Assembly: GCA_036500765.1 (NCBI GenBank)
Contig: DASYBM010000004.1
Coordinates: 744,001-808,000, forward strand
Direction: 5' to 3'
From: Candidatus Sulfotelmatobacter sp.
GTDB taxonomy: Bacteria; Acidobacteriota; Terriglobia; Terriglobales; Acidobacteriaceae
Length of the DNA: 64,000 bases
Shown: piece after piece, positions 16,718-20,411 of the stretch
How positions within the stretch are numbered: position 1 is the stretch's first letter
How the letters are laid out: every line of letters begins with the position of its first letter
Notes under the pieces: model-generated
Told to the model about the DNA's origin: nothing
What the model saw: the letters and a program-made list of their open reading frames with translations, nothing else
Databases searched by the model: none
Made by a program: the position numbers and the translations under genes

Positions 16718-17962
16718 TCAGCGGCTGGCGAAGCGGCGCAGCCGGCCGGGGTAGGCCGCGCCTGCTCGGCTCAGTTCATCGGCCGCGGTCGTGGAAATCG
16801 GCTGCACATTTTCTGTACGGTAACGTAGCAGGGCGGCAATGTTGCCGACCTTGTCGAACTCCGGATCGTCCTTCACGTAAAGCGTTTCGATGTCGCGGCG
16901 AATCACCCAGGGCAGGATGGCCTCGCCGACGTCGACAATCTCTTGGGTGGCATGACCGCAGGCCGGACAGAAGCTGACGAGATGAGCATCGATGTGTCCG
17001 CACGAGGAACACTCGATGGCGTGCGATTGTAGATTTTCTCCCACCAGCAACGTCTGAACCTCTCCCAGCTCCAGCGAGCGCAACACGCGGCGTAGTCCAG
17101 TTACACCTCGTCCATTGCTGCGCGCCTGGCTCACAGCCTGCTCGACTAACTCGCGCCGCCGATGGCTTTGCCAACGCTCGACGATCGGCTGCGCGAGAGT
17201 ACGAATCTCATCGCGAGTCACGTGCGCCAGGTCCGCATGGAAGCGGCCAATCAGCGCATGGCTTACTGAGGAATGAAGTTGCGGTTCCACTTGAGAGAGA
17301 TGAGCTTCCTGGCAGGCCAGAATCCATTTCTCAAACACATTTCTCTCCAAAAGATCTTTCAACGTTTCGGCTACATTTTTGAAGTGCTGGCGGGCCTCGT
17401 CTTCCACGCGGCGCTGGGCGTGCCCGCCGTCATAGCCGGCAAAGCCGTCGCTGCGGCCCCGGCGCGGCAGCGGATGAAACAAGTCTTCGCGTTCGGTCAA
17501 CTCGCCCAGACGAAGATCGAAAATGCGGGCGCGATGGCGATCGATTAGCACCACCCCCAGAAGCGGAGACGCGCCCAGAAGATACGCAATTGGTTTTAAA
17601 TGAAAATGCCGGTCGACGAAAAGTTGTGTGCCGGGAAGGCTGGCGGGTAAATCGTATTCACGCCAGATGTTTTGCCCAGCGCACGCAAACACGGCTTTGC
17701 CATGGGTTCCATTGCTGCGCAGTTCAGCCGATAGTCGCAGGATGCGGTCTAAGTCGCCGCGAGCGAATTCTCTTTGGCCTTTGCTCTCGCCTTTACTCTC
17801 CAAGTTGTGCAGCGCTTCGCGGGTCAGATCCTTGATCAGAATCGTATCTTCCTTGTGCGCCTTGTTACGCGGCGTCGTGGGTTGGAAATAAAAACTGACG
17901 GCACAGGATTTTTCATCTTGAAATTCAGTTAACTCTCGGATTTGTTCGCGAGTGATCGACAT
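16718..17962 (-). CDS. Bacterial eRF1-like (BaeRF) protein with C-terminal zinc ribbon
   Basis: This 414-residue protein resembles the bacterial archaeo-eukaryotic release factor family. The central domain carries GGHAQRRVEDEARQHFKNVAE. That fits the GGQ loop and following helix of eRF1/Pelota, with His in place of Gln. The C-terminal L7Ae-like domain (LVEQAVSQARSNGRGVTGLRR, then LGEVQTLLVGENL) ends in a zinc ribbon, CSSCGHIDAHLVSFCPACG. Family members are thought to act on ribosomes or peptidyl-tRNA. The gene lies 31 nt downstream of the HPF-sigma fusion on the same strand, so they are probably co-transcribed. The family call is good; the biochemical role is inference. Confidence 0.8.
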   Translation of the reverse strand: MSITREQIRELTEFQDEKSCAVSFYFQPTTPRNKAHKEDTILIKDLTREALHNLESKGESKGQREFARGDLDRILRLSAELRSNGTHGKAVFACAGQNIWREYDLPASLPGTQLFVDRHFHLKPIAYLLGASPLLGVVLIDRHRARIFDLRLGELTEREDLFHPLPRRGRSDGFAGYDGGHAQRRVEDEARQHFKNVAETLKDLLERNVFEKWILACQEAHLSQVEPQLHSSVSHALIGRFHADLAHVTRDEIRTLAQPIVERWQSHRRRELVEQAVSQARSNGRGVTGLRRVLRSLELGEVQTLLVGENLQSHAIECSSCGHIDAHLVSFCPACGHATQEIVDVGEAILPWVIRRDIETLYVKDDPEFDKVGNIAALLRYRTENVQPISTTAADELSRAGAAYPGRLRRFASR

Positions 17963-17993: not shown

Positions 17994-19046
17994 TTAGGCG
18001 GTGCCGGTCGGAGCTAGCCGGCCCCGGAACTCCTGGGCCAGCCCGGGCGCCTTGCGTAAATGGTCGCGGGCAGCGGAAACAAACGTGAGCACGCGCTCCG
18101 GCGGGAGGCCGGTAATGGCCGCAATTTCTTCGACGCCGAAGCCTTCAATTGCATGCAGGATGAAGGTCTCGCGCGGACCCGACCCGAGATCGCGCAAGGC
18201 AGACGCGATCACGCGCAGCAATTCGTCGGAAACCATGATCTGCTCCGGGGTAGCCACGCGAGCGTCTGCGATTACGCTCGCGCCGGTCATGGATTCGTCG
18301 GGCTGATGAAATTGCAGCTCCGGTTCATCGCTGCCCCGCACGTTCCGCGCTCGAGCGGAGTCTTCCAGAGGCCGGGCGTTGCCATTGCTCTCGTCGGTAC
18401 GCGAAAGTTCATCGAGCGCGCGCAGCGCCAGGCGATACAGCCAGGGCTCCAGCGCCAGGCGTTCCGGCTTTTCCTGACCGTCGCCAAGCGCGGCCGCAAT
18501 GGTCTCGTCAATTACTTCATCCTTCGAGAGACTGTCGGGCGCGATGGATTCCTGCGCCTCGCGGAAATAGATCTCCCGTTCGACGAAGCGCTCTAAGCGG
18601 CCGAGGTTCACGTTGACATAGGAGCGGATGTCGTCTGCGGAAATGGTGGGCGGAAACACGGCGGCGATGGTTTGCTCAAAGGGAACTTCCCGCATCGTGG
18701 CACGGGACCGGGCGCTGGTTCCGCGCTTGCCGCGCTGCCACCTGTGCGATGCCCGCAGAACATCTTTGTGCTTGTTCACCTGCTGCAGCAAATCTTCAAA
18801 CGCACCCTTCACCGCAGTCGCGGCGTTGGCAGCGGAAACCTGCACAGCCATTTGGCCCGATGGCAAGCGCAGATTCAGGGAAACGCTGGTGCCCTCGCGC
18901 GGCGAGATTTCCTCGACGACGCCCTTGAGATGGATCAGTTCGGGACGGAAAACCTGTAGTCGTTTTTGCAGTTTTTCGATCTGATGTTGGATATCTTTTT
19001 CGACGGCGGGAATTTTATGAAGACGGTAACTGACGTGAACATTCAT
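17994..19046 (-). CDS. Ribosome hibernation (HPF/RaiA) domain fused to ECF-like sigma factor
   Basis: This 350-residue protein has two unrelated halves. Residues 1 to about 100 look like HPF/RaiA (VHVSYRLHKIPAVEKDIQHQ, then SVSLNLRLPSGQMAVQVSA and AFEDLLQQVNKHKDVLR), which in other proteins binds the 30S decoding centre. From about 125 on it reads like a sigma70-family factor. A region 2-like part is DEVIDETIAAALG with PWLYRLALRALDEL. A region 4 helix-turn-helix part is ALRDLGSGPRETFILHAIEG with GVEEIAAITGLPPERVL. The start at 19046 has GAGG six bases upstream; an earlier frame start at 19067 lacks this. The BaeRF gene follows. The fusion frame is uninterrupted, so it is not an obvious assembly error. 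Confidence 0.8.
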   Translation of the reverse strand: MNVHVSYRLHKIPAVEKDIQHQIEKLQKRLQVFRPELIHLKGVVEEISPREGTSVSLNLRLPSGQMAVQVSAANAATAVKGAFEDLLQQVNKHKDVLRASHRWQRGKRGTSARSRATMREVPFEQTIAAVFPPTISADDIRSYVNVNLGRLERFVEREIYFREAQESIAPDSLSKDEVIDETIAAALGDGQEKPERLALEPWLYRLALRALDELSRTDESNGNARPLEDSARARNVRGSDEPELQFHQPDESMTGASVIADARVATPEQIMVSDELLRVIASALRDLGSGPRETFILHAIEGFGVEEIAAITGLPPERVLTFVSAARDHLRKAPGLAQEFRGRLAPTGTA

Positions 19047-19310
19047 GAGCGCCTCGGCCTTGCACAACGAAGTAGCGCAACCAAGTGCTATCTAAGTCGA
19101 ATTGTACACCTGGTGGGAAAGTGGAAATCCAGGAATCTGCACCCGGTCGCAGCTTTTTGATTCAGTTTCGGGAATCGTAACGAATCCAAAGAATGTGCCA
19201 AATATTCTTACGTGCGGGTTAAAATATCGCGCTCGAGTTTGCCGTTGGCATCGCATGATTGATTTCCAATCCCGACCGTTTGTTTTCGAAGACTGAATTA
19301 GGGAAAACCT

Positions 19311-20411
19311 ATGCCTCCTCCGTTCCTGGCTGACGAGTTGTTCGACGGCACCAAGAGACCGGCTGAGTTTGGGCAGGTAACGATCGAGTTTGACGAGATT
19401 CGGGGCAAGGACCGGCAGATCGTGCGTCCGACTCGCGTCTGCGGAATTGTCTGCCCGACCGTTACGGGGGAGCGCGGAGACGCTCCCAAATGGATCTGTG
19501 ACGTAGATTTCAGCGGGAAACAAGACGTGAACCGAGGGCACATCATGGGGCTTCGGCTGGGCGGTCCTGAGGACTCCAGGAACATTGTCCCGCAGTGGGC
19601 AAGATGGCAAGGATCCGGCGTGTGGGCGCGGATGGAGGACCAGGTCAGAAAGCTCGCAGAACAGCAGCTCAAGCGCGGGCGCTATGTGATGTTCGACTGT
19701 TTTGTCCGCTACCTGAACTACGGAAGTGATCGGCGTAAATCGTTTCCCACCGGCTTCTTTGTGACCGCTACGATGCTCCACGGCAATCATAAGGTGGATC
19801 GCTCAACTCCGCGATTGCAATGGTCCTTCGATCAGGAGCAGAACGTCACTGATGACATGCTGTTTCTGCGCACCGAAGTTGCAAATTTCGGCAATCCGGG
19901 ATGGTCGGATTGGGAGGCCAAGGTAAAGGTCAACAAGAAGACCGGAGAAGTACGAGATGCGAGCCGTTTTATCAAGACTGGGCAGGATTCCCGCTATGCA
20001 GCAACCGCGAGTTCCTCCAGTTCGTCCGTCCCATTCAGCTCATCAAGTTCCTCCAGTTCGTCTTCCTCAAGTTCGTCCTCCAGTTCGCTATCCAATTCCT
20101 CTCTCTCTAGTCCGTCTTTTTCCATTCCGTCGAGTTCGTCGAGTCTGTCGGTCCAGGGAAAGAACAAGCGAAAACAGGTGATCTCCCCCTTAATCTATTC
20201 GCGCAAAGGCAGCGGCAATGACGACTACATGAAGACGGTCGGACAGAAACTCGCTGCCAATGAGCTGGCGAGGAAGAAGTTGAAACAAGCGCCTCCGGCA
20301 AATCCGAACGATATCGATTATCAGACCGAGTCGGACGATGACGAGTTCATTCCCAGTAGCGAGTCGGAGGAAAGCGACAGCAGCGAGTCCGATCCGAGCG
20401 AAAGTAACTAG
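19311..20411 (+). CDS. DNA/RNA non-specific endonuclease with polyserine tract and acidic tail
   Basis: This is a 366-residue protein. The N-terminal 210 residues hold a beta-beta-alpha metal nuclease signature, DVNRGHIMGLRLGGPEDSRNIVPQ, where H77 would be the general base and N91 a metal ligand. This pattern is typical of nuclease domains of secreted polymorphic toxins. Residues about 234-279 are almost pure serine. A basic patch (GKNKRKQ) follows, and the last 35 residues are highly acidic (SDDDEFIPSSESEESDSSES). There is no signal peptide, no toxin-delivery domain and no recognisable immunity gene. AGGG seven bases before the ATG supports the start. It is divergent from the HPF-sigma gene. 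Confidence 0.78.
   Translation: MPPPFLADELFDGTKRPAEFGQVTIEFDEIRGKDRQIVRPTRVCGIVCPTVTGERGDAPKWICDVDFSGKQDVNRGHIMGLRLGGPEDSRNIVPQWARWQGSGVWARMEDQVRKLAEQQLKRGRYVMFDCFVRYLNYGSDRRKSFPTGFFVTATMLHGNHKVDRSTPRLQWSFDQEQNVTDDMLFLRTEVANFGNPGWSDWEAKVKVNKKTGEVRDASRFIKTGQDSRYAATASSSSSSVPFSSSSSSSSSSSSSSSSSLSNSSLSSPSFSIPSSSSSLSVQGKNKRKQVISPLIYSRKGSGNDDYMKTVGQKLAANELARKKLKQAPPANPNDIDYQTESDDDEFIPSSESEESDSSESDPSESN

What the first reader, a model, noticed from the sequence alone, without database searches (positions are those of the whole stretch)
17994..19046. Ribosome-hibernation domain fused to an ECF-like sigma factor
One uninterrupted reading frame joins an HPF/RaiA-like N-terminus to sigma region 2-like and region 4-like parts. 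Known HPF proteins silence 30S subunits, and known sigma factors direct RNA polymerase. A single chain holding both would tie ribosome state to promoter choice: for example the sigma part would be sequestered on hibernating ribosomes and released when growth resumes, or the reverse. I know of no described protein of this design. The mechanism is inference.
Basis: partly seen in the sequence, partly recalled or inferred. Interest (0 to 1): 0.85.

Follow-up and report, generated by a model that had tools for sequence, protein, structure and literature searches.

The report
Ribosome-hibernation protein fused to sigma mimic
A bacterial protein joins a domain that parks idle ribosomes to a domain shaped like a gene-switching sigma factor but apparently unable to read promoters, which suggests an undescribed link between ribosome dormancy and stress control.

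Summary
The fusion is real. Window 17994-19046, minus strand, encodes 350 aa in one frame: an HPF/RaiA (S30AE) domain, a sigma2-like domain, a conserved linker and a sigma4-like domain. Pfam scores S30AE and sigma4 above its cut-offs; AlphaFold gives both folds. It is a widespread family: 25 loci, two partial, in 24 of 396 same-phylum genomes, and heat-tolerance islands of Alphaproteobacteria and Burkholderiaceae. In a sister family it is the only S30AE match in 8 of 8 genomes, so the hibernation half is probably functional. It lies 31 nt upstream of a Balon-type hibernation factor.

The sigma half is probably not a promoter-reading sigma factor. Its -35 helix lacks the basic residues of true sigma factors (mean 0.42 of 3 in 31 fusions; 2.2 in 15 own-genome sigma ORFs; 3.0 in 8 EcfG; 0.44 in 9 PhyR). 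The region 2.2 Gln is replaced by Asp. I read it as a hibernation factor carrying a PhyR-like sigma mimic that binds a partner, most likely an anti-sigma factor, possibly RNA polymerase. PhyR's partner NepR matched in 0 of 99 phylum genomes, so any partner there is unknown.

The parts
17994..19046 (-). Whole gene: HPF/RaiA-sigma-mimic fusion, 350 aa
18732..19046 (-). S30AE (HPF/RaiA) domain, residues about 1-105, beta-alpha-beta-beta-beta-alpha
   Evidence: Pfam, AlphaFold pLDDT about 90, RaiA 8rd8_D Z 15.5 rmsd 1.4 over 98 residues
18651..18731 (-). Low-confidence linker 1, residues 106-132
   Evidence: pLDDT under 60 in most of it
18381..18650 (-). Sigma2-like helical domain, residues 133-222; Asp180 where the sigma controls have Gln; about 10 extra residues between regions 2.1 and 2.2
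18264..18311 (-). Conserved linker motif F-x-Q-P-D-E-x-L-x-x-E-D-L-x-x-D (family consensus, residues 246-261), between sigma2 and sigma4
18048..18248 (-). Sigma4-like helix-turn-helix domain, residues 267-333
   Evidence: Pfam, family profile match to E. coli sigma-E 1or7 E 2.6e-13
18051..18101 (-). Recognition helix, residues 316-332, without the basic -35 contact residues of true sigma factors
16718..17962 (-). Balon-type (baeRF10) ribosome-hibernation factor, 31 nt downstream, same strand; adjacent to the fusion in 13 of 14 loci examined from the own family and L077
15124..16395 (-). Beta-aspartyl peptidase/asparaginase with a weak Tat-signal match, next on the same strand; found in the fetched stretch of 5 of 6 own-family relatives, close to the Balon-type gene in 4; role unclear
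19100..19110 (-). Conserved upstream element GGTGTACAATT, promoter-like
   Evidence: alignment of 13 upstream regions; 3 exact copies in the genome, this one included

Best explanation
A ribosome-hibernation factor of the HPF/RaiA kind whose C-terminal half is a sigma-factor mimic. The S30AE half should sit in the 30S channel of idle ribosomes and silence them, in the window's own family probably together with the co-encoded Balon-type factor (inferred from family and synteny). The sigma2-linker-sigma4 half keeps the sigma fold but has lost the residues that read the -35 element and the region 2.2 Gln (shown by comparison), so it probably does not start transcription. It most likely binds a normal partner of a sigma factor, first choice an anti-sigma factor, as PhyR does with NepR. 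Ribosome binding would hide or present the mimic, so that the number of hibernating ribosomes sets how much stress sigma factor is free. Binding of a partner and gating by the ribosome are inference.
For: Both folds predicted; S30AE and Sigma70_r4_2 each hit 24 of 25 members. Only S30AE match in 8 of 8 sister-family genomes. One helix-alpha2 position is Lys/Arg in 34 of 34, and S30AE net charge is +8.4 against +9.8 in 11 canonical HPFs. Recognition-helix basic residues: 0.42 of 3 in 31 fusions against 2.2 in 15 own-genome sigma ORFs (Mann-Whitney p 4.7e-7) and 0.44 in 9 PhyR (p 0.85). Residue 180 is Asp/Asn in 34 of 34 fusions, Gln in 14 of 14 sigma controls, never Gln in 5 PhyR. Of the 37 sigma4 matches in the own genome only the fusion also matches PhyR_sigma-like at E<=0.001. 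Nearest sigma structure: EcfG bound to NepR, Z 14.2, then SigG1 (12.1), PhyR-NepR and SigW (both 11.7). Neighbours include hibernation or proteostasis genes in several lineages.
Against: No partner identified: NepR in 0 of 99 phylum genomes (a short, 35-position model), and no recognisable anti-sigma gene among the neighbours put to Pfam, though some are hypothetical; L111 has a STAS gene. Thirteen of 31 fusions keep one basic residue. Sigma70_r4_2 scores as well as or better than PhyR_sigma-like (24 against 20 of 25 members; PhyR_sigma-like, 25.3 bits, is below its cut-off of 27), and in alphaproteobacteria PhyR_sigma-like also gives weak matches that I did not identify. The sigma2 Trp that PhyR loses is kept in 38 of 40. 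The linker resembles the sigma finger of primary sigma factors in part of the family, hinting at RNA polymerase. Many canonical basic columns of HPF are not kept. The model does not fix the linker or the domains relative to each other (pTM 0.48).
Confidence: 0.5

Rival explanations
1. The sigma-like half binds RNA polymerase without reading promoters: a double hibernation factor that parks the ribosome and holds or blocks RNA polymerase near it, or competes with sigma factors during stress.
For: The sigma fold and the region 2 Trp are kept. The conserved linker resembles the sigma finger: a regex matched 12 of 34 fusions strictly and 19 of 34 loosely, 0 of 15 own-genome sigma ORFs, 0 of 8 EcfG, and (strict form) the own RpoD linker.
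Against: The region 2.2 Gln, which I recall as a core-contact residue, is replaced by Asp. The regex was written after seeing the sequences.
Confidence: 0.22
2. The sigma-like half is only a structural C-terminal domain, taking the place of the C-terminal domain of long HPF, and contacts ribosomes or another hibernation factor with no role in transcription.
For: It is the only S30AE match in 8 sister-family genomes. It lies next to a Balon-type gene in 13 of 14 loci examined. No anti-sigma partner was found.
Against: Both sigma domains and the linker are kept over very distant lineages; a mere dimer domain would not need a complete two-domain sigma fold.
Confidence: 0.2
3. One reading: a working ECF-type sigma factor whose promoter choice is controlled by ribosome binding.
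For: Sigma70_r4_2 above the Pfam cut-off in this protein and sigma fold. Own-family upstream regions share an invariant element, which could be autoregulation.
Against: At most one of three -35 contact residues is kept in 31 of 31 non-redundant fusions, and the region 2.2 Gln is absent in 34 of 34. Sigma70_r2 hit in 1 of 25. The upstream elements look housekeeping-like (TTGCxT-like/TACAAT in the own family, TATAAT in 8 of 14 other Acidobacteriota loci). The Hsp20 promoter of the alphaproteobacterial islands looks RpoH-like.
Confidence: 0.08

Closest known systems
HPF/RaiA (S30AE) ribosome-hibernation factors, including long HPF
   Same: S30AE domain over the Pfam cut-off, predicted fold Z 15.5 to RaiA 8rd8_D; can be the only S30AE match in a genome
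   Different: The C-terminal half is a sigma-like domain; the canonical HPFs of the genus (for example L001) have a different C-terminal part
PhyR sigma-like domain (anti-anti-sigma factor of the alphaproteobacterial general stress response)
   Same: Sigma fold without the -35 contact residues or the region 2.2 Gln
   Different: HPF domain and no receiver domain; the region 2 Trp is kept; longer conserved linker; NepR not found in the 99 phylum genomes searched
ECF / sigma-70 family sigma factors
   Same: Sigma4 Pfam hit, sigma2-linker-sigma4 layout; plasmid relatives are annotated 'sigma-70 family', 'sigma-28', 'FliA' or hypothetical
   Different: Promoter-contact residues and region 2.2 Gln lost; N-terminal ribosome-hibernation domain
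Balon family (baeRF-type) hibernation factors
   Same: The downstream neighbour belongs here by profile; the Balon paper (PMC10901736, 12 passages read) reports Balon operons with RaiA, Hsp20, HdeD and alternative sigma-70 factors
   Different: Balon itself is a different protein; the passages read do not mention a RaiA-sigma fusion
[quoted passage not shown]
   Same: Alphaproteobacterial copies lie among Hsp20, FtsH, an AAA ATPase that I take for ClpK/ClpG, HdeD, YfdX, TrxC and KefB in varying sets; PMC8290217 (passages read) notes a 'sigma 24 like' gene in the Methylobacillus tLST
   Different: Of the island proteins used as queries only the fusion has a match in the window; whether the Methylobacillus gene is this fusion was not checked

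Membership tests
HPF/RaiA (S30AE) | S30AE domain above the curated cut-off | tested here: met
   26.4 vs 23.7 bits; 24 of 25 members at E<=0.01
HPF/RaiA (S30AE) | beta-alpha-beta-beta-beta-alpha fold | tested here: met
   (predicted model)
HPF/RaiA (S30AE) | Conserved basic rRNA-facing residues | tested here: inconclusive
   One helix-alpha2 position basic in 34 of 34 and net charge +8.4, but many canonical Lys/Arg columns are not kept
HPF/RaiA (S30AE) | Ribosome binding and silencing | not testable with these tools
   needs bench work
ECF/sigma-70 factor | Sigma region 4 domain | tested here: met
   26.3 vs 25.7 bits; 24 of 25 members
ECF/sigma-70 factor | Sigma region 2 domain by profile | tested here: not met
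   Sigma70_r2 in 1 of 25 at E<=0.01; the fold is predicted
ECF/sigma-70 factor | Basic -35 contact residues in the recognition helix | tested here: not met
   0 or 1 of 3 in 31 of 31 fusions
ECF/sigma-70 factor | Region 2.2 core-contact Gln (role recalled) | tested here: not met
   Asp/Asn in 34 of 34; Gln in 14 of 14 sigma controls
PhyR | Sigma-like domain lacking DNA-contact residues | tested here: met
   PhyR_sigma-like profile over its cut-off (28.3 bits), below it (25.3)
PhyR | C-terminal receiver domain | tested here: not met
   No response-regulator hit at E<=1; S30AE at the N-terminus instead
PhyR | NepR partner in the genome | tested here: not met
   0 of 99 phylum genomes at E<=0.001, own genome included; Caulobacter control positive
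tLST stress island | Hsp20, FtsH, ClpK/G, YfdX, HdeD, TrxC, KefB cluster around the gene | tested here: not met
   None of these island proteins has a tblastn match (E<=1e-3) in the window; ClpK/G-type gene upstream and HdeD downstream in 40 of 47 alphaproteobacterial loci

The most novel reading that the evidence does not exclude
A ribosome-gated sigma mimic: one chain that counts hibernating ribosomes and passes this to transcription by titrating an anti-sigma factor (or RNA polymerase). It would have arisen long ago and spread between phyla, including on conjugative plasmids with heat-tolerance genes.
Probability: 0.4. Interest if true: 0.92.

Novelty: new variant of a known kind. Interest (0 to 1): 0.77.

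Why it matters
Ribosome hibernation and sigma-factor switching are two main ways bacteria enter and leave dormancy, and I found no described protein that carries both. If the reading is right, it gives a direct physical channel from ribosome state to transcription, and a second kind of sigma mimic beside PhyR; it would then be categorically new. It also corrects database annotation: plasmid relatives are labelled sigma factors or FliA. Copies on plasmids with heat-tolerance genes make it testable in laboratory strains.

Tried and rejected
Working sigma factor: rejected as the leading view on residue evidence, though not excluded.

NepR as the general partner: rejected for Acidobacteriota, within the limits of a 35-position model.

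Regulon by promoter motif: GGTGTACAATT has only 3 exact sites in the genome, so no regulon was inferred. The EcfG-like and ECF-like hits upstream of Hsp20 in the islands (9 and 13 of 31; 0.2 and 1.0 expected) lie in near-identical loci that also carry an RpoH-like site (24 of 31) and are not independent; ECF-like hits upstream of TrxC (5 of 28; 0.8 expected) were not followed.

Constant gene partner: neighbours differ by clade (Balon; island genes; GroEL-DnaK; aminotransferase and SpoU methylase; STAS), so no single partner emerged. PADLOC gave no hit. A deeper alignment did not place the domains relative to each other.

Rows dropped before counts: 31 non-redundant fusions were chosen from 82 loci, some of them the same genomes in two collections, by 4-mer similarity and a length of at least 290 aa. 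Fifteen sigma controls were taken from 16 own-genome ORFs that hit the sigma profile, in 25 of the 36 other sigma4 places. The PhyR controls are the PF22233 matches of 8 genomes; the EcfG controls are sigma ORFs beside them, a name I inferred. and the residue-180 count used 29 of the 31 fusions plus 5 of 8 sister-family ones, 9 of 15 sigma ORFs, 5 of 8 EcfG and 5 of 9 PhyR. L025 lacks the linker motif, and in the sister family the motif is degenerate. The scan used a pattern of that motif, so it finds only carriers of it. My note gave the Gln count as 8 of 9; one search shows 9 of 9.

Full report
Observation. The gene at window 17994-19046 is on the minus strand, one frame of 350 aa. S30AE (residues 13-97) and Sigma70_r4_2 (280-330) pass Pfam cut-offs. 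AlphaFold predicts the S30AE fold at pLDDT about 90 and two helical sigma-like domains. In the structural comparison the S30AE half matches RaiA from the Balon-RaiA ribosome structure (8rd8_D, Z 15.5, rmsd 1.4, 98 residues). The sigma half matches EcfG bound to NepR best (5uxx_C, Z 14.2, rmsd 4.2, 154 residues), then SigG1 (7qh5_B, Z 12.1), the PhyR-NepR complex (2lfw, Z 11.7) and SigW (5wuq_A, Z 11.7); rows within 1 Z are tied, and the tool warns that Z under about 13 in helical bundles may mean only a common arrangement. A profile of 21 family members matches both solved HPFs and solved sigma factors.

Distribution. A family profile over 396 genomes of the phylum (up to 5 candidates scored per genome) gives a clear gap: 25 loci in 24 genomes score 227 bits or more, the next 98 or less; two of the 25 are partial. 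The phylum is Acidobacteriota, inferred because unnamed contigs equal named Acidobacteria contigs in length and match place. tblastn of plasmids found 24 records, 19 covering at least 80% of the protein; annotated ones among the 20 listed read sigma-70, sigma-28, FliA, sigma factor-like or hypothetical. A scan of genome contigs with a pattern of the linker motif gave 53 loci: Alphaproteobacteria (Paracoccus, Methylorubrum, Bosea, Brevundimonas and others), Acidobacteria and one Caldisericaceae MAG.

Hibernation half. In 20 relatives plus the own genome, 12 of the 13 genomes of the own genus have a canonical HPF and an additional fusion-type S30AE reading frame; the thirteenth is 72% complete and has no S30AE match. 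Of these twelve I read the fusion in seven (six full-length plus the window); the others are judged by frame length. In a sister family of the same order, 8 of 8 genomes have a single S30AE match, and that match is the fusion. So the fused domain most likely works as an HPF. One helix-alpha2 position is basic in 34 of 34, and net charge is +8.4 against +9.8 in 11 canonical HPFs, although many other canonical basic columns are lost.

Sigma half. I compared the recognition helix with 15 sigma ORFs of the own genome, and with 8 EcfG and 9 PhyR from 8 alphaproteobacterial genomes that carry the fusion (EcfG named by position beside PhyR). At three positions that are basic in true sigma factors, fusions have a mean of 0.42 basic residues (18 with none, 13 with one, 31 in all), own sigma ORFs 2.2 (one with none, one with one), EcfG 3.0, PhyR 0.44. 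Helix net charge is -1.2, +2.7, +5.0 and -2.0. Mann-Whitney: fusion against own sigma p 4.7e-7, against PhyR p 0.85; related sequences are not independent, so these p values are a guide. In the 40-row alignment 26 have none and 14 have one. The region 2.2 Gln is Gln in 9 of 9 own sigma and 5 of 5 EcfG, Asp or Asn in 34 of 34 fusions, and never Gln in 5 PhyR. The own genome has 37 sigma4 matches, and only the fusion also matches PhyR_sigma-like at E<=0.001; but Sigma70_r4_2 scores as well or better on the family (24 against 20 of 25 members), so the profile alone does not decide. The review PMC8103513 (passages read) describes PhyR in just these terms: a correct ECF structure with promoter and core regions degenerated, used to titrate NepR. 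One difference is that the region 2 Trp, absent in the 5 PhyR, stays in 38 of 40 fusions.

Linker. The most conserved stretch is F-x-Q-P-D-E-x-L-x-x-E-D-L-x-x-D before sigma4 (mean column conservation 0.59 for residues 246-268 against 0.22-0.48 for the other regions). Its end resembles the sigma finger (name recalled) of the own RpoD (LGDFIEDRGVVSP). A regex written after seeing the data fits 12 of 34 fusions strictly and 19 of 34 loosely, 0 of 15 own sigma ORFs and 0 of 8 EcfG. This is the main reason to keep the RNA-polymerase rival.

Neighbours. In the window the fusion is followed after 31 nt by a baeRF10/Balon-type protein (far below the NCBIfam equivalog cut-offs, so family level only) and then an asparaginase. 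The Balon-type gene is adjacent in 13 of 14 loci examined, which are 13 of the own family (window included) plus L077; L093 lacks it. A Blastocatellia MAG has Hsp20, ClpP, FtsH, the fusion and a Balon-type gene. None of the 8 sister-family loci shows it in the short flank held. Of 47 alphaproteobacterial loci, 40 have the fusion between an AAA ATPase, which I take for ClpK/ClpG, and HdeD, and 32 have an Hsp20 gene in the stretch held; the seven exceptions include contigs cut short and two islands in another order. Many of these loci are near-identical. Three annotated Burkholderiaceae plasmids have Hsp20 genes near the fusion, and in two of them GroES-GroEL-DnaK follow. In another Acidobacteriota clade an aminotransferase follows in three loci tested, and a SpoU methylase lies close by in two.

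Promoters. Thirteen own-family upstream regions share GGTGTA[C/A][A/G]AT, with a TTGC-like box in several; 8 of 14 other Acidobacteriota loci have TATAAT starting 13-17 nt before the start codon, suggesting leaderless transcripts, and 0 of 8 sister-family loci do. Both look like housekeeping promoters, which does not favour an autoregulated ECF factor.

Reading. Shown: a conserved fusion, an S30AE half that is the only such match in some genomes, and a sigma half without sigma signature residues. Inferred: ribosome silencing, partner binding, gating. The Balon paper (PMC10901736, passages read) supports RaiA-Balon co-binding to ribosomes and operons with alternative sigma-70 factors, some of which could be this fusion; I did not check. 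Literature searches in an open-access library listed no description of the fusion (listings seen; passages of PMC8103513 read); the main ECF classification paper was not held under the two identifiers I tried, so prior mention there cannot be excluded.

Noticed in passing
L099, L100, L102-L104, L107, L108, L110, just upstream of the fusion: TATAAT boxes starting 13-17 nt before the ATG suggest leaderless mRNAs for the fusion in one Acidobacteriota clade (8 of 14 loci looked at).
   Followed up: partly
window 19100-19110: GGTGTACAATT core conserved upstream of the fusion in 13 own-family loci; two further exact copies elsewhere in the genome.
   Followed up: partly
L034-L091, upstream of Hsp20: RpoH-like promoter pattern in 24 of 31 near-identical island copies.
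   Followed up: no
L086, L087: Paracoccus bogoriensis and Pseudotabrizicola copies whose N-terminal part did not align in the scan, in a differently ordered stress island.
   Followed up: no
G377 (L010/L098 and contig C67): A Blastocatellia genome with two fusion genes.
   Followed up: no
window 16718-17962: The Balon-type protein has GGH as its only GG motif and a weak zinc-ribbon match below cut-off.
   Followed up: no
window 19311-20411: DNA/RNA non-specific endonuclease with a long serine-rich tract, divergent from the fusion.
   Followed up: no
PDB 9i5v chain 14: A solved 401-aa chain named RaiA whose S30AE match is at its C-terminus: another extended hibernation factor.
   Followed up: no
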